Below, piece by piece: positions 14,747 to 18,817 of a stretch of 18,817 nucleotides of DNA. A program made the translations under genes and the position numbers. The notes under the pieces are model-generated. The model saw only the letters and a list, made by a program, of their open reading frames with translations, made no database searches and was not told where the DNA came from. The DNA is taken from the NCBI GenBank assembly GCA_021817025.1, contig JAKAWF010000038.1:1-18817 (forward strand). Reading direction: 5' to 3'. Source of the DNA: a bacterium (lineage in GTDB: Bacteria > Chloroflexota > Dormibacteria > UBA8260 > Bog-877). The stretch's first letter is position 1. Each line of letters opens with the position of its first letter.

Positions 14747-15835
14747 TCAAACTGCGCCCGCCCAACTGCCCGGCGCCAGGGCCAGGCGCACCGCCTCGAC
14801 CAGGTCCTCAGACTTCACGCCCGGCAGGGCTGCGCCCGGCCAGGCAACTCCGATGCGATCTCCCACCGCTCCAATGTCGGCGGGCCCCAGGAGAGCCTGC
14901 TCCACCCTTTGCAGGGCATCTCCCACGGTGTAGAAGTCGCCGCTGATCAGGGCTGACGTGATTTGCTGATCCGCCACGATCACGGTCACCCGCAGGAGGC
15001 CGCCGGCAGCCTTGTGGACAGCGTGGCCGAGCCCGACATTGCCGGTGATCCGCAGCGCCTTGAGGCGGTCTGGAGGCATGCGGACCTGGTCGATCCACGC
15101 CGAGGAGCGCATCTGGCTGACCCAGCGACGGTACTGGAGCCGTTCCGCGTCGCGCAGCTCGCCGGGCACGAGGCTGCGGCCGAGGGTGCGCTCGAAGGCG
15201 CTCACCAGTTCCCGATGGACCGTCCGCGGGGCCGGACGGTAGCCCAGCTCCCGGGCCAGGCTGGAGACGTACGCCTCCATCGACTGAGCCACCTTGTCGC
15301 GCAGCTTCTCGTCGGGGATGCGCAGGACGCTGGCCGCAGCCCGGGCATCGAAGGCGGTGATAATCGAACCGACGAAGACGAACGCCTGGCCGATGGTGGC
15401 GGCCCCGAGCCCGCCGATCTTGCGGCCGGCCACTTGGAGGTCGTTGACCGGTGCGAAGTGCGCTCCGCTGATCCCCAGCGCTCGGTAGCATTCCACCGGA
15501 CCGCGGGCGAAGTACTCGAAGGCGTCCGTGATCTGGGCCGGCATCTCCTGGGGGTGCCAGACCAGTTGGAAGAACAACTGGTCCCGGTCGAGGTAGACAG
15601 CACCACCCCCCACCTCGCGGCGGAGAACTGGCAGACCCAGCCGCTGGCAGGCGGCGACGTCGACCTCGCGGTGGAGCTCCTGGTGGCGGCCGATGCAGAC
15701 ATACGGCCTTCGCGGCCGACAGACGATGATGGTGTTGGGGTCCTCAGGCCCCATGCTCGACGCCACCGCGTGATAGAGGGTCTGGCTCTCGGTGTACGAG
15801 CACAGGCCAAGGTCTAGCAGCCGGATCCCCTTCAT
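14747..15835 (-). CDS. lipoate-protein ligase with fused C-terminal accessory (LplB-like) domain
   Basis: A 362-residue enzyme that activates lipoate or octanoate with ATP and transfers it to a lysine of a carrier protein. Residues about 1-250 are the LplA catalytic domain: a PYVCIGRHQE strand, the RREVGGGAVYLDRDQLFF lipoate-binding loop (R72-F89) and the catalytic lysine K139 in VAGRKIGG. Residues about 260-362 resemble the accessory domain (ITGNVGLGHAVHKAAGGLLR, LISGDFYTVGDALQRVE) that is a separate LplB in some organisms. This fused architecture is that of the sLpl(AB) ligases that serve lipoate-binding proteins of the sHdr sulfur-oxidation pathway. The nearby GcvH-like genes fit this role. 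ATG at 15835 has GGAGG five bases upstream; longer in-frame starts lack such a site and run into the divergent gene. The 106 bases to the next gene's start presumably hold divergent promoters. Confidence 0.9.
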   Translation of the reverse strand: MKGIRLLDLGLCSYTESQTLYHAVASSMGPEDPNTIIVCRPRRPYVCIGRHQELHREVDVAACQRLGLPVLRREVGGGAVYLDRDQLFFQLVWHPQEMPAQITDAFEYFARGPVECYRALGISGAHFAPVNDLQVAGRKIGGLGAATIGQAFVFVGSIITAFDARAAASVLRIPDEKLRDKVAQSMEAYVSSLARELGYRPAPRTVHRELVSAFERTLGRSLVPGELRDAERLQYRRWVSQMRSSAWIDQVRMPPDRLKALRITGNVGLGHAVHKAAGGLLRVTVIVADQQITSALISGDFYTVGDALQRVEQALLGPADIGAVGDRIGVAWPGAALPGVKSEDLVEAVRLALAPGSWAGAV

Positions 15836-15840
15836 GTGTC

Positions 15841-15845
15841 CCTCC
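15841..15845 (-). promoter_or_regulatory. ribosome binding site fixing the lipoate ligase start
   Basis: GGAGG five bases before the ATG at 15835 selects this start over the in-frame ATG at 15856 and longer alternatives. Confidence 0.7.
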
Positions 15846-15941
15846 ACTTCACCCATCGGCGGACTGACTGACCGCGCCCGGGTCACAGCTGGGCTGGAAC
15901 TCCCATCCCCGCTGCGGCCAGACCCAGCGGGATTTGCCGTA

Positions 15942-17174
15942 GTGGAGTCTCTCACCTTGCGCCCGGTCGTGAACTCGTGGGCCGTCGCGCCCGACCAGTC
16001 CGTCGTGGTCGGGCGCGACGCAGGGAGGCCGGAGATCGCAGTGCTGCCCACTCCCTCCCGCGCCTACCAGCGGCTGGTCGAGCTACCGCTGCCGGCTCAT
16101 CACATCGCCCCTGCCGCCGCCGGCCGGCTGTGGTTGCGTTGCTGGCCGGCCAAGATCACACAGAGGGCCCGGGCGCGCCCGTTCGGGCGCGAACTGCTGG
16201 TGCTGGCCCCGGACGGCACCGTGCTTCGGCTCCTGACCATGGAGGGCGCACTGGCCCAGCTCCTGGCCGCCGGTCCTCTGATGCTGGTGGCGGCGGTCGG
16301 CGGGACGCTCCACGCCTTTGACGCGGACGGGCGGCTCCGCTGGCGCCATCCGGTGCCGGGATGGCCAGCCACCCCGGAGCCACGAGTCTGGTCCGATGAA
16401 GACGGGGCCAGGATCTGGGTGGCCGAGGCCGGCGGCATCAGCGAACTGGACGGTTCCGGGGCGCTGCGCTGGAGCGCGGACTTGCCGGCCTCTCTCGCCC
16501 CTGACCCGGTCTCACAGGCGCGACGCCGCCAGGCGGCGGAGTTGCTGGGAGTCGCGATCGATGCCTCTGCCCGCCAGCTGCGTCGCGCCTTCCACCGGCG
16601 GGCCAAGGAGACCCATCCAGACCATCATCCCGATGAACCCCGGGCGGCGGAGAGGTTTCGGGCAGTGGCGGGAGCGTACCGGGCCCTGAGGGAGGCCTCG
16701 CCCGGGGGGAATCCCCACGAGAGTGGCCTGCTCCGGGTCAGTGATGCCGTGGCGGCAGGGCAGGAGGGGGTGTGGGTTGGCACCAGCTCGGGGAGCTGGC
16801 ACCGCTTCGACGGCCGCGGCCGCGAAGTCGAGCAGGGCCAGCTCCGGCGCGGAGGGCCCGCGGTGCTGGCGGTCGACAGCGCGGGTCAGCTGGTCGCAGC
16901 CGGCTGTGAAGGGGAACTGGAGATGGGCGACGGCAGGCTGGTCCCGCTACCCGCCGACTGGGACTACCGCCTGCGCGCCACCCGCGCCGGTGTGATCGTC
17001 CACGGCCGTGATCGGCTGCTGGTGGTTGGGCCCGATGGCACCGTTCAGCAAAGTCGGCTGTCGCGCCCGGCGCAGGCCGAATGGGTCGGTGAAGATCTCT
17101 ACCTCTTCTGCGCCGAGGGCGACTTCCGCCATCTCAGACCGAGTAACCCTGCTCCTCCAGCAGGTCCTCCATGA
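15942..17174 (+). CDS. beta-propeller-like protein with inserted J-domain
   Basis: A protein of about 410 residues with an unusual architecture. Residues about 1-190 and 255-400 consist of short beta-rich repeats of the PQQ/WD type (LLVLAPDGTVLRLL, GGTLHAFDADGRLRWRHP, GGISELDGSGALRWSADL; later GVWVGTSSGSWHRFDGRGR and LLVVGPDGTVQQSRL). Between them, at about 197-251, lies a complete J-domain (AAELLGVAIDASARQLRRAF) with the essential HPD motif at 225-227, expected to stimulate a DnaK-type chaperone. No signal peptide or membrane segment is seen. The start is uncertain: GTG at 15942 avoids overlap with the divergent ligase gene; ATG at 15834 would give 447 residues. Its last 41 bases overlap the end of hdrC convergently. 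I do not know a named family; an assembly or quality-control factor is a guess. Confidence 0.75.
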   Translation: MESLTLRPVVNSWAVAPDQSVVVGRDAGRPEIAVLPTPSRAYQRLVELPLPAHHIAPAAAGRLWLRCWPAKITQRARARPFGRELLVLAPDGTVLRLLTMEGALAQLLAAGPLMLVAAVGGTLHAFDADGRLRWRHPVPGWPATPEPRVWSDEDGARIWVAEAGGISELDGSGALRWSADLPASLAPDPVSQARRRQAAELLGVAIDASARQLRRAFHRRAKETHPDHHPDEPRAAERFRAVAGAYRALREASPGGNPHESGLLRVSDAVAAGQEGVWVGTSSGSWHRFDGRGREVEQGQLRRGGPAVLAVDSAGQLVAAGCEGELEMGDGRLVPLPADWDYRLRATRAGVIVHGRDRLLVVGPDGTVQQSRLSRPAQAEWVGEDLYLFCAEGDFRHLRPSNPAPPAGPP

Positions 17175-17817
17175 CGTCACCCAGAATCGTGTGCAGATTG
17201 ACATCGATGCTCTTGATCATGTCCAGGACCCCAGTCAGGTGCCAGATCAAGTAGAGCTCGGTGAGGGTCTTCTCGGACACGGCCCATGAGGTGCTGGTGG
17301 TGTGGAGCGTTTCTGGAGGCAGGGCCCTGCGCCACAGCTCGAGATTGGCCGAGACCACCTTGGTGTCCGGGCCCCAGTCCGGGAACGCCTCCGGCTGGAT
17401 CATGTCCGGGGAGACCTGCGTGCCGGTGCCCATGATCTTGTAGATGATCCGTCCGTACCCTTCCAGCGCCTCCTTGGCGGTGCGCAGACCGTTCCGGACC
17501 GCCACCTCGCGAAGGATCGTGATGACCCCGCCGGGGTTGTTGCCACGGGGACAGCGCAGGCAGGAGAAGCACTGGGAGCAGTCCCAGACCTCGCCATTCA
17601 TCTGCTCCCAGACCAGCTCGACGTCCTGGCGGGCGACCGCCTGGGTGATCCGACGGGGACTGAACTCGTAGAAGCGTGCGGAGGGGCAGGCCGCCACGCA
17701 GATCCCGCATTCGTAGCAACCCTTGAGGAAGTCGGGGAAGCGCGCGTCGGCTTGGACCTCAGCGAAGAGGCGCTGCTTCTCCTCGAGGGGGGCTTCGGGA
17801 ACCGAGGTGGGCCGCAT
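17134..17817 (-). CDS. HdrC-like iron-sulfur subunit (sHdr-type heterodisulfide reductase)
   Basis: A 227-residue soluble protein with two 4Fe-4S motifs. The first is a full CX2CX2CX3CP (C34, C37, C40, C44 in CYECGICVAACP). The second is CX2CX2CX2CP (C80, C83, C86, C89 in CSQCFSCLRCPRG), one residue shorter than the classical form. An HdrC-type helical C-terminus (about 150-227) follows, with no membrane helix. In heterodisulfide reductases HdrC relays electrons to the catalytic HdrB. Its operon with tusA and GcvH-like lipoate carriers points to the sulfur-oxidising sHdr complex rather than the methanogen enzyme. The ATG overlaps the tusA stop by one base (TGATG). hdrB and hdrA are not in the window. 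GlpC-like or lactate-utilisation subunits were considered but fit the neighbourhood less well. Confidence 0.85.
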   Translation of the reverse strand: MRPTSVPEAPLEEKQRLFAEVQADARFPDFLKGCYECGICVAACPSARFYEFSPRRITQAVARQDVELVWEQMNGEVWDCSQCFSCLRCPRGNNPGGVITILREVAVRNGLRTAKEALEGYGRIIYKIMGTGTQVSPDMIQPEAFPDWGPDTKVVSANLELWRRALPPETLHTTSTSWAVSEKTLTELYLIWHLTGVLDMIKSIDVNLHTILGDVMEDLLEEQGYSV

Positions 17818-18056
17818 CAGCTGGTCCTCCGGATCAGGAATCGCTGCACCTTGCCGTCCTGCTCGGTGGTGACCAGCTCATGTCCGGTGCGCCGTGTCCA
17901 GGTCTGAATGTCGGGGGTGGCCCCGGGGTCGTCGGCGATCAGGAGCAGCGTCTGCCCGACCGCCACCTCCTTGATCGCCTTGGAGACCTTCACGATCGGC
18001 ATCGGGCACATCATGTGCAGGCAGTCCAGGGTCTTGTCGGCAGCGTCAATGGCCAT
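17817..18056 (-). CDS. tusA: TusA-family sulfur carrier protein
   Basis: A 79-residue TusA/SirA-like protein. The active-site motif CPMP holds the sulfur-binding cysteine C17 after the typical LDCLHMMCPMPIVKV start; an extra cysteine, C12, lies five residues earlier. The remainder follows the two-layer TusA fold (KAIKEVAVGQTLLLIADDPG, then IQTWTRRTGHEL). TusA carries persulfide sulfur between proteins. In sulfur oxidisers it delivers sulfane sulfur to the sHdr or Dsr pathway, whereas in other bacteria it serves tRNA thiolation or molybdenum cofactor. Its position between lipoate-binding proteins and HdrC favours sulfur oxidation. ATG at 18056 is preferred over a longer form from 18092 because GGAGG lies six bases upstream of it. 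It overlaps the small CxxC gene by 11 bases and hdrC by one. Confidence 0.93.
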   Translation of the reverse strand: MAIDAADKTLDCLHMMCPMPIVKVSKAIKEVAVGQTLLLIADDPGATPDIQTWTRRTGHELVTTEQDGKVQRFLIRRTS

Positions 18057-18264
18057 CACTGTCCTCCAGTTGCGGGGCGCGGATGGAGTCACCCTCCAGC
18101 AGGTGGGACCACTCCAGTCGCTGTTGCTCTTTGAAACCTCGTCGTACCCAGGTGGGGGCGAGTTGCCAACAGGTGCGGCACATCGGTCGCCCCGGTTCCA
18201 CCGGCATCATCTGGCAGAGCCGGCAGAGCGGCTCAGTCGGCGCAGCGGAAGCATCGGATTCCAT
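18046..18264 (-). CDS. small double-CxxC (zinc-ribbon-like) protein
   Basis: A 72-residue frame with two CxxC knuckles 11 residues apart (C14, C17 and C29, C32), a likely zinc-ribbon or rubredoxin-like metal site, followed by a basic/aromatic segment (TWVRRGFKEQQRLEW) and an acidic tail. Its start lies 32 bases inside the upstream lipoate-binding-protein gene and its end overlaps tusA by 11 bases, so without it there would be a gap of about 175 bases in an otherwise gapless operon. This supports it being real. No strong ribosome site precedes the ATG (or the GTG just before it), which suggests translational coupling. I do not recognise the family; a metal-binding accessory protein of the sHdr cluster is inference. 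Confidence 0.65.
   Translation of the reverse strand: MESDASAAPTEPLCRLCQMMPVEPGRPMCRTCWQLAPTWVRRGFKEQQRLEWSHLLEGDSIRAPQLEDSDGH
18063..18067 (-). promoter_or_regulatory. ribosome binding site fixing the tusA start
   Basis: GGAGG six bases before the ATG at 18056, inside the last codons of the small CxxC gene. It excludes the 12-residue longer in-frame reading. Confidence 0.7.
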
Positions 18265-18694
18265 CACGGTCGATGCGCTCCTTGTAGAACTCGAAGGCCC
18301 GCCTGCCCGGGGTCAGCCGGTGCCGTTCACCTGCCAGCGCCGTCGGGCGCAGTCGCACCAGCCAGCCGGCCCCGTAGGGATCGCGATTGGCGACCAGGAT
18401 GTCCCGCTCGAAGCTGGCCTGATTGTGGGCCAGAAGTTCGCCCGACAGAGGGGTGGGGAAGGGGCCCGCCCACTTCGCGCTCTCGATGGTGGCGGCGCTC
18501 TGCCCCGCCTCCAGCAGCCTTCCCGGCCGCCTGAACAGGATGCTCACGAGCTTGCCGGCTCTGGTCTGGGCGGGGTCGGTCATGCCCATGGTGACGCTAC
18601 CGTCCGCTTCGAAGCGGACCCAGACGTCGGTCTCGAGCTGGTACTCGAGATCCTCTGGAATAGCGCATCCCTGGTGGGCTCGCAGCTGCTCCAT
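18233..18694 (-). CDS. lbpA: GcvH-like lipoate-binding protein (LbpA type)
   Basis: A 153-residue protein with the GcvH/lipoyl hammerhead fold. The lipoyl-attachment lysine is K74 in ESAKWAGPFPTPLSGEL, preceded by the KLVSILFRRPGRLLEAGQS strand. The aromatic KWxGP context resembles sulfur-pathway LbpA proteins rather than glycine-cleavage H proteins (ESVKAxSDxxxPxSGE). The C-terminus ends in two cysteines (GIRCFRCAD). In the sHdr pathway LbpA carries the lipoyl arm on which sulfur from TusA is thought to be oxidised, passing electrons to the Hdr-like complex. No other glycine-cleavage gene is present. ATG at 18694 has GGAGG six bases upstream, embedded in the final codons of the preceding gene, from whose stop it is separated by two bases. 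Confidence 0.88.
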   Translation of the reverse strand: MEQLRAHQGCAIPEDLEYQLETDVWVRFEADGSVTMGMTDPAQTRAGKLVSILFRRPGRLLEAGQSAATIESAKWAGPFPTPLSGELLAHNQASFERDILVANRDPYGAGWLVRLRPTALAGERHRLTPGRRAFEFYKERIDRDGIRCFRCAD

Positions 18695-18696
18695 CC

Positions 18697-18817
18697 TCAG
18701 CCTCCACAGTCGATTCCCTCCGCCTGGAGCAGGCGGCGGTAGGCTTCCACGCCCGCACTGCCGGTCACCAGCTCGGCACTCTCCACCTCCCAGTCGGAGG
18801 GCTGGAGGCGGACGATC
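18697..18817 (-). CDS. second GcvH-like lipoate-binding protein, C-terminal part
   Basis: The window edge cuts this gene; only the last 39 residues and the stop are present. Its end (IVRLQPSDWEVESAELV..., closing in AEGIDCGG) aligns without gaps over 37 residues with the C-terminal part of the neighbouring GcvH-like protein, with 12 identities, including VRL, the final GI-x-C and a matching tyrosine. I therefore infer a tandem paralogue. The lipoyl lysine lies beyond the edge. It is tightly coupled to the next gene (two-base gap) and supplies that gene's ribosome site. An alternative is a longer multidomain protein with a C-terminal GcvH-like domain. Confidence 0.6.
   Translation of the reverse strand, partial: IVRLQPSDWEVESAELVTGSAGVEAYRRLLQAEGIDCGG

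What the first reader, a model, noticed from the sequence alone, without database searches (positions are those of the whole stretch)
17134..18817. Edge of a lipoate-dependent sulfur-oxidation (sHdr) operon in a high-GC, non-proteobacterial-looking genome
Seen: two GcvH-like genes, TusA with CPMP, HdrC with two iron-sulfur motifs, all overlapping or within two bases. Known: sHdr clusters pair HdrC/B/A-like subunits with a lipoate-binding protein and TusA for oxidation of sulfane sulfur to sulfite. Inference: this organism can use thiosulfate or other reduced sulfur as electron donor, with an order (lbpA, lbpA, CxxC gene, tusA, hdrC) in which HdrC ends the operon rather than starting it.
Basis: partly seen in the sequence, partly recalled or inferred. 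Interest (0 to 1): 0.85.

Follow-up and report, generated by a model that had tools for sequence, protein, structure and literature searches.

The report
Sulfur-oxidation operon end in Dormibacteria
This is the tail end of a gene set that bacteria use to burn reduced sulfur with the help of lipoate-carrying proteins; the kind is known, but here it sits in a little-known group (Dormibacteria) with its genes in a shifted order, and in close relatives it lies beside genes for the remaining steps to sulfate.

Summary
The minus strand holds the last 39 codons of one lbpA, a whole second lbpA, a small four-cysteine gene, tusA and hdrC (one 2-nt gap, otherwise overlapping), then a convergent gene and an sLpl(AB)-type lipoate ligase. 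The lineage is Dormibacteria. The window's own genome is not held, so genes beyond 18817 were read in relatives. In the closest (L001, HdrC 93% identical) the operon is hdrB1-hdrA-hyp-hdrC2B2-etfB-etfA-EMO-like-...-lbpA-lbpA-CxxC-tusA-hdrC1. Both LbpAs carry the cysteines that mark LbpA, as far as visible; 6 of 6 true GcvH examined have none. It is a known kind: the Etf-linked 'Group III' sHdr cluster (eLife 2018). What differs: hdrC1 ends the operon in 5 of 80 loci plus the window, one clade; a rare CxxC gene; Sat, AprBA and Qmo-like genes nearby in 4 of those 5 genomes. Those 5 drafts show no DsrA over cut-off, no SoxB and no RuBisCO; LipS1/LipS2 are missing from 4. Sulfur oxidation is supported by homology and context, not by experiment. 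Thiosulfate as substrate is not shown.

The parts
18697..18816 (-). 3' end of lbpA_a (lipoate-binding protein, ESSKW in L001-L005), C-terminal 39 aa with the C-terminal Cys-Gly-Gly
   Evidence: sequence; 79% identity to the C-terminus of L001 LbpA_a; the full gene in L001 matches GCV_H at 113.1 bits
18233..18694 (-). lbpA_b, lipoate-binding protein with lysine in ESAKW, N-terminal GC and C-terminal CFRC
   Evidence: GCV_H 90.7 bits; below the gcvH equivalog cut-off, 58.9 against 115.85; tree; cysteines
18046..18264 (-). small four-cysteine (CxxC-x11-CxxC) protein of 72 aa, function unknown, probably metal-binding
   Evidence: conserved in L001-L005; dN .063, dS .29; 4 relatives in the protein search; DZR_2 14.1 bits, below cut-off; model of modest confidence, no fold match at E<=0.001
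17817..18056 (-). tusA, sulfur carrier protein with CPMP
   Evidence: Pfam TusA 83 bits
17134..17817 (-). hdrC1, iron-sulfur subunit of the sHdr complex; last gene of the operon
   Evidence: HdrC model 77.4 bits, below its cut-off of 350; PDB HdrC chains; tree with 80 loci
15792..17174 (+). convergent gene with a DnaJ domain (rest of the protein unassigned); 3' end overlaps hdrC1 by 41 nt; start codon uncertain
   Evidence: DnaJ 43.3 bits; same position in L001-L004, not in L005
14747..15835 (-). sLpl(AB)-type lipoate-protein ligase (LplA catalytic domain plus LplB-like C-terminus)
   Evidence: LplA-B_cat 110.9 bits; LplB-like 26.3 bits at residues 277-356, below its cut-off of 65; PDB 3r07 chains A and C; 65-81% identical single hit at the same place in G001-G004

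Best explanation
This is the 3' end of an Etf-linked (Group III) sulfur-oxidizing heterodisulfide-reductase-like operon of a Dormibacteria lineage, followed by the ligase that probably loads lipoate onto its LbpA proteins. Proposed working (inferred from the Hyphomicrobium model and gene content): DsrE-type proteins and TusA pass persulfide sulfur to the lipoyl arm or terminal cysteines of LbpA. The sHdr complex (HdrC1-HdrB1-HdrA-Hyp-HdrC2B2), with HdrC1 as electron wire, oxidizes the bound sulfur to sulfite. Electrons leave through EtfBA and a membrane-bound EMO-like protein to the quinone pool. In relatives, neighbouring AprBA, Sat and Qmo-like proteins turn sulfite into APS and then sulfate with ATP recovery. 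Shown here: gene content, order, motifs, relationships. Inferred: direction, substrate, electron path.
For: Operon content in L001 and L001-L005. HdrA of L001 to PDB 6tjr E=1e-87, ahead of methanogen HdrA. Cysteines that mark LbpA are present (for the definition), and 6 of 6 true GcvH domains examined contain no cysteine. LbpA and GcvH separate in the tree, the 6 GcvH rows together at SH-aLRT 99. True gcvH with gcvT and gcvPA elsewhere in G001. sLpl(AB)-like ligase beside the operon, single Lpl hit in each of G001-G004. Sat (G001), AprA and AprB (G003) above curated cut-offs, with homologues near the operon in G001-G004. No DsrA above cut-off in 7 of 7 genomes. The published Group III and Sulfobacillus hdr cluster II match in content.
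Against: The window's own hdrA and hdrB were not seen. LipS1/LipS2 are missing from G001-G004, and LipA was found above cut-off in only 2 of those 4, G001 and G004. No SoxB match in 7 of 7 genomes, so the route by which sulfur enters is unknown. For DsrA and SoxB none of the 14 control genomes reached the cut-off either, so those searches have no positive control. Genome completeness is not told. No expression or activity data. The genetic proof in the passages I read is for Hyphomicrobium (Group I), not Group III.
Confidence: 0.88

Rival explanations
1. The Hdr-Etf-LbpA set oxidizes thiols to disulfides on a carrier (as suggested for Thermomicrobium roseum) for survival in starvation, rather than oxidizing sulfane sulfur to sulfite for growth.
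For: Proposed in print for the T. roseum cluster, upregulated 45-fold on average in persistence (passages); no SoxB match in 7 of 7 genomes; RuBisCO in only 2 of 7, G411 and G233.
Against: Sat and AprBA near the operon in G001-G004 imply that sulfite is made and used; DsrE2-type and ArsR-type genes upstream.
Confidence: 0.15
2. Part of a sulfate- or sulfite-reducing pathway (Sat, Apr and Qmo run in the reductive direction, Hdr-Etf feeding electrons).
For: Sat, AprBA and Qmo-like genes lie near the operon; 4 of 7 genomes have a weak DsrA-model hit of 25-41 bits.
Against: No DsrA above the cut-off of 392.85 bits in 7 of 7 genomes, and similar sub-cut-off hits in 8 of 14 control genomes; LbpA and its ligase go with sulfur oxidizers in the papers read.
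Confidence: 0.04
3. Glycine-cleavage genes with a stray HdrC of the GlpC or lactate-utilisation type.
For: Both lbpA genes are GcvH homologues.
Against: Operon content; cysteines and tree; separate true gcvH beside gcvT and gcvPA in G001; HdrC scores 77.4 bits with HdrC, 18.5 with GlpC.
Confidence: 0.01

Closest known systems
Group III hdr-like/lbpA clusters with etfBA (Actinobacteria, Firmicutes; Cao et al. 2018, PMC6067878: sections 5 and 6 and passages read)
   Same: Hdr-like genes, two or three lbpA, etfBA linked; LbpA with two extra cysteines
   Different: Host lineage (Dormibacteria); hdrC1 at the 3' end; extra CxxC gene; Sat-AprBA-Qmo-like genes nearby in 4 of 5 permuted genomes. Figure 2 of that paper was not visible, so gene order there was not compared directly
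Sulfobacillus hdr gene cluster II (PMC4378227, passages read)
   Same: shares many subunits with cluster I (Hdr, dsrE, tusA, gcvH-like, lpl) and adds etfAB and a long membrane hdrC-like gene; L057 here is Sulfobacillus harzensis
   Different: In L057 hdrC1 precedes hdrB1, and lbpA-lbpA-sLpl-tusA sit between hdrC2B2 and etfBA
Thermomicrobium roseum 19-gene cluster trd_0160-0142 (PMC6776052, passages read)
   Same: hdrABC, etfAB, tusA, dsrE1, dsrE2, three lbpA in a Chloroflexi member
   Different: Order not given in the passages; different class; no sat or apr named in the passages
Hyphomicrobium denitrificans sHdr-LbpA system (Group I; PMC10332631 and PMC12423496, passages read)
   Same: HdrA kin, LbpA, sLpl(AB), TusA, DsrE-type protein, ArsR-type regulator
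   Different: No etfBA or EMO named for the operon in the passages read; lipS1/lipS2 and sox are linked there; hdrC2 and hdrB2 listed as separate there, fused here

Membership tests
sHdr-LbpA system (Group III) | LbpA with the lipoyl lysine and two cysteines (near N- and C-terminus) that GcvH lacks | tested here: met
   lbpA_b QGC...ESAKW...CFRC; lbpA_a tail EGIDCGG (its N-terminus and lysine are outside the window; seen in L001); 6 of 6 true GcvH domains have no cysteine
sHdr-LbpA system (Group III) | hdrC1, hdrB1, hdrA, hyp, hdrC2, hdrB2 in one cluster | tested here: met
   Met in relatives L001-L005 (hdrC2 and hdrB2 fused; hdrB1 cut by the contig end in L005); in the window only hdrC1 is visible
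sHdr-LbpA system (Group III) | HdrA of the short sHdr type | tested here: met
   L001 HdrA, 367 aa, best PDB hit 6tjr over 343 residues (identity of 6tjr recalled); C-x-G-[SC]-R-D...CSxxCC motif in 72 of 72 HdrA rows scoring over 450 bits
sHdr-LbpA system (Group III) | two or three lbpA genes linked with etfBA | tested here: met
   L001, L002-L004, L005 with etf genes broken by a run of 598 N
sHdr-LbpA system (Group III) | specific lipoate ligase sLpl(AB) near the cluster | tested here: met
   Window 15835-14747 and G001-G004; the LplB part is below its own cut-off
sHdr-LbpA system (Group III) | LipS1/LipS2 lipoyl synthases in the genome (74.3% of sHdr bacteria, PMC10332631 passage) | tested here: not met
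   None in G001-G004. Hits in G005 (LipS1 236.6 bits, over its cut-off; LipS2 183.9, under), G233 (both under) and G411 (both partial, under). Not obligatory by that paper
sHdr-LbpA system (Group III) | oxidation of sulfane sulfur to sulfite | not testable with these tools
   needs culture or enzyme
Glycine cleavage system | gcvH with gcvT and gcvP | tested here: not met
   LbpA_b of the window and LbpA_a of L001 score under the gcvH cut-off (58.9, 82.3, against 115.85); none of the L001 operon genes scanned is gcvT or gcvP; true set elsewhere in G001

The most novel reading that the evidence does not exclude
A clade of Dormibacteria is a lithotroph or mixotroph that oxidizes sulfane sulfur fully to sulfate from one chromosomal region (dsrE/dsrE2-arsR ... 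sat-aprBA-qmo-like-shdr-etf-EMO-lbpA-lbpA-CxxC-tusA-hdrC-slpl, as in G001), without Sox, Dsr, LipS1/S2 or RuBisCO. The two LbpAs have split roles, one ending in Cys-Gly (sulfur carrier), the other in CxxC (dithiol, redox relay), and the small CxxC protein is a clade-specific partner of TusA or LbpA.
Probability: 0.35. Interest if true: 0.55.

Novelty: new member of a known kind. Interest (0 to 1): 0.42.

Why it matters
My searches of the held papers gave no paper that describes this cluster in Dormibacteria, though I saw only listings and passages. If it works, a group reported from soils and acid mine sites (passage) gains a concrete electron source with testable markers. The two diagnosable LbpA subtypes give a handle on a question that the 2018 eLife paper calls unexplained: why some sulfur oxidizers have two LbpAs (passage).

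Tried and rejected
Glycine-cleavage and GlpC readings were tested and rejected. Sulfate reduction was considered and put low. Electron bifurcation by EtfBA was looked at and left open: the four best PDB hits of L001 EtfA (6fah, 5ol2, 7koe, 7qh2) bifurcate by recall, but EtfB is nearest to 1o94, a non-bifurcating one by recall. The CxxC protein: AlphaFold model pLDDT 72.1, pTM 0.45 on 7 sequences, no PDB fold match at E<=0.001, Pfam DZR_2 at 14.1 bits below cut-off; function stays unknown. The 247-aa operon protein has no Pfam or NCBIfam match at E<=0.001 and only one PDB hit, at E=0.43. A regex for the HdrA motif copied too strictly from a paper found 0 of 72; allowing Ser or Cys it found 72 of 72. 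The gene in the qmoC place: the qmoC model matches only its iron-sulfur part (model positions 1-95 of 360), so it is HdrCB/TfrB-like; QmoA and QmoB are named by me from HdrA-type hits and order. In one search the HdrC2B2 and EMO profiles overlap, so those labels were reassigned by score difference.
Full report
What is there. The minus strand from 18816 to 17134 holds, in order, the C-terminal 39 residues of a first lipoate-binding protein, a complete second one (153 aa), a 72-aa four-cysteine protein, TusA (79 aa, CPMP) and HdrC (227 aa), with a 2-nt gap and then overlaps of 32, 11 and 1 nt. Convergent to hdrC lies a gene with a DnaJ domain, and beyond it on the minus strand an LplA-LplB-type lipoate ligase. 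dN is 0.06 to 0.22 of dS between the window and L001 for the four whole operon genes.

Whose it is. Among the nearest HdrC proteins (93-98%), those whose source name states an organism are called Dormibacteria or Dormibacteraeota, except one at 95% named Nanopelagicaceae. No whole genome is held for the window. The window's HdrC is on a contig of 34,953 bases, of which I can read only 18,817.

What lies upstream. A scan of genome contigs with an HdrC alignment gave 233 relatives, of which the best 80 were kept. In L001, hdrC1 is preceded by hdrB1, hdrA, a 247-aa unknown, a fused hdrC2B2, etfB, etfA, a 664-aa membrane HdrD-like protein (EMO-like by recall; four hydrophobic segments, two 4Fe-4S motifs, a CCG domain), a 133-aa unknown, a 97-aa zinc-finger-like protein, lbpA, lbpA, the CxxC gene and tusA. 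The same set is seen in L002-L005, with hdrB1 cut by the contig end and etf genes broken by N in L005. HdrA of L001 best matches PDB 6tjr, E=1.2e-87, ahead of methanogen HdrA; I recall 6tjr as the sHdrA of Hyphomicrobium denitrificans.

LbpA, not GcvH. The eLife 2018 paper (section 6) marks LbpA by a lysine plus one cysteine near each end, absent from GcvH. Both window LbpAs fit as far as they can be seen (the N-terminus of lbpA_a is outside). The 6 true GcvH examined, from G001-G005 and G233, have no cysteine in the domain. In a tree of 103 rows those 6 form one group at SH-aLRT 99, apart from the window's LbpA (few columns, many open forks). In G001 the true gcvH stands between gcvT and gcvPA. 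HdrC scores 77.4 bits with an HdrC model and 18.5 with GlpC, both under the models' cut-offs.

The order. In 74 of 80 loci the next scored gene 3' of hdrC1 is hdrB1 (73 within 400 nt, L048 at 666 nt), and in L075 it follows a second HdrC1 piece. tusA lies within 2.5 kb 5' of hdrC1 in 52 of 70 loci that could be tested, the permuted ones included; in the Bacillota loci it mostly lies elsewhere. In L001-L005 hdrB1 lies far upstream and hdrC1 ends the operon, as in the window. These six form one clade (SH-aLRT 98, one change of state). Two other Dormibacteria genomes, G233 and G411, keep the common order. So the common order seems to have been circularly permuted once. HdrC1 was found in 7 of 110 genomes of the class and in 24 of 400 sampled from the phylum, one of them a partial match.

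The wider region. Upstream of hdrB1, G001, G002 and G003 have Sat, AprB, AprA, QmoA-like, QmoB-like and, in the place of QmoC, an HdrCB-like protein. The gap to hdrB1 is about 0.2 kb in G001 and G003 and 1.2 kb in G002. In L004 Sat, AprB, AprA and Qmo-like genes lie downstream. The contig of L005 ends in hdrB1, so it cannot tell. Of the other 75 loci only L014 shows Sat and AprA, but those were seen only to 10 kb on each side at most, whereas extra upstream stretches were fetched for G001-G004. Curated cut-offs were tested and met for Sat of G001 and for AprA and AprB of G003; the rest are by similarity to these. A DsrE2-like gene (189.2 bits, cut-off 210), a weaker DsrE-like gene (21 bits) and an ArsR-type gene lie further upstream in G001, with homologues in L095 and partly L093. 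In G001-G005 there is no DsrA above cut-off (weak hits of 40.5 and 37.1 bits in G001 and G004), no SoxB match and no RuBisCO match; G233 and G411 have RuBisCO. None of the 14 control genomes passed the DsrA or SoxB cut-offs, so those two searches had no positive control. All are drafts of untold completeness.

Lipoate supply. G001-G004 have a single Lpl hit, at the operon, and no LipS1/LipS2 (one LipS2-model hit of 22.9 bits in G001 overlaps its LipA). LipA is above cut-off in G001 and G004, a 37-residue fragment in G003, not found in G002. G005, G233 and, partially, G411 have LipS1 and LipS2 hits; only LipS1 of G005 passes its cut-off. In L005 the ligase follows hdrC1 without the DnaJ-type gene and is followed by lipS genes. 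So the ligase in the window's clade probably works with LipA-made or free lipoate; this is inference. PMC10332631 (passages) gives LipS1/S2 in 74.3% of sHdr bacteria, so their lack does not exclude membership.

How it works. The chain from DsrE/TusA to LbpA, sHdr, sulfite, Etf, EMO-like and quinone is inferred from published work on Hyphomicrobium and from gene content; only content, order, motifs and kinship are shown here. An alternative in print for Thermomicrobium is thiol oxidation. The Sat-AprBA neighbours speak for sulfite as product.

Is it new. The kind is known: Group III, Sulfobacillus cluster II, the T. roseum cluster. I found no paper with both 'sHdr' and 'Dormibacter'. In two papers that hold 'Dormibacter' with sulfur terms, the passages shown did not report this cluster in Dormibacteria; one of them has a figure of Sat, AprBA and Qmo genes per genome, with a Dormibacteria genome among its set, that I could not see. 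None of the 12 papers listed of 174 holds 'Dormibacterota'; two searches were seen as listings of 20 of 1,165 and 20 of 21. Supplementary tables, subscription papers and preprints were not searched, and the taxonomic tables of PMC10332631 may list the phylum.

Noticed in passing
window 18697-18816 and 18233-18694; LbpA rows of L001-L080 and L123-L130: The LbpAs of these clusters tend to two subtypes: ESGKW/ESSKW mostly with a single C-terminal Cys (34 rows; 6 ESGKW rows have CxxC, 6 rows none), and ESAKW mostly with a C-terminal CxxC (21 rows; 5 with one Cys, 3 none). Counts include duplicate rows from one contig (L074 and L130) and rows cut by contig ends. This may bear on why two LbpAs are kept.
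   Followed up: partly
L001:8387-8680 and 21 other loci: A small Cys/His protein (zf-Di19-like, below cut-off) lies near the EMO-like gene and lbpA in 22 of 81 rows, across several phyla; no function known to me.
   Followed up: partly
L005:12266-13027, L049:15710-16285 and similar: A third LbpA-like protein with EAAKF (10 rows) and no C-terminal cysteine sits near ligase and lipS genes, perhaps a lipoyl-assembly scaffold rather than a sulfur carrier.
   Followed up: no
window 17134-17817: The second iron-sulfur motif of HdrC1 is CX2CX2CX2CP, one residue shorter than in the methanogen HdrC chains aligned; seen in 81 of 81 rows.
   Followed up: partly
L091:15179-16384: The gene in the place of qmoC lacks a match to the membrane part of the qmoC model and is HdrCB/TfrB-like.
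   Followed up: partly
G012 (L057, Sulfobacillus harzensis): This Group III genome has no LipS1 match and only weak LipS2 matches (29.1 bits at best), although it has the ligase and two lbpA.
   Followed up: no
G002, G003: LipA was not found in G002 and only as a short piece at a contig start in G003; draft gaps or another lipoate source.
   Followed up: no
window 15792-17174: A DnaJ-domain protein, convergent with hdrC1 and overlapping its 3' end by 41 nt, is conserved at the same place in L001-L004; role unknown.
   Followed up: no
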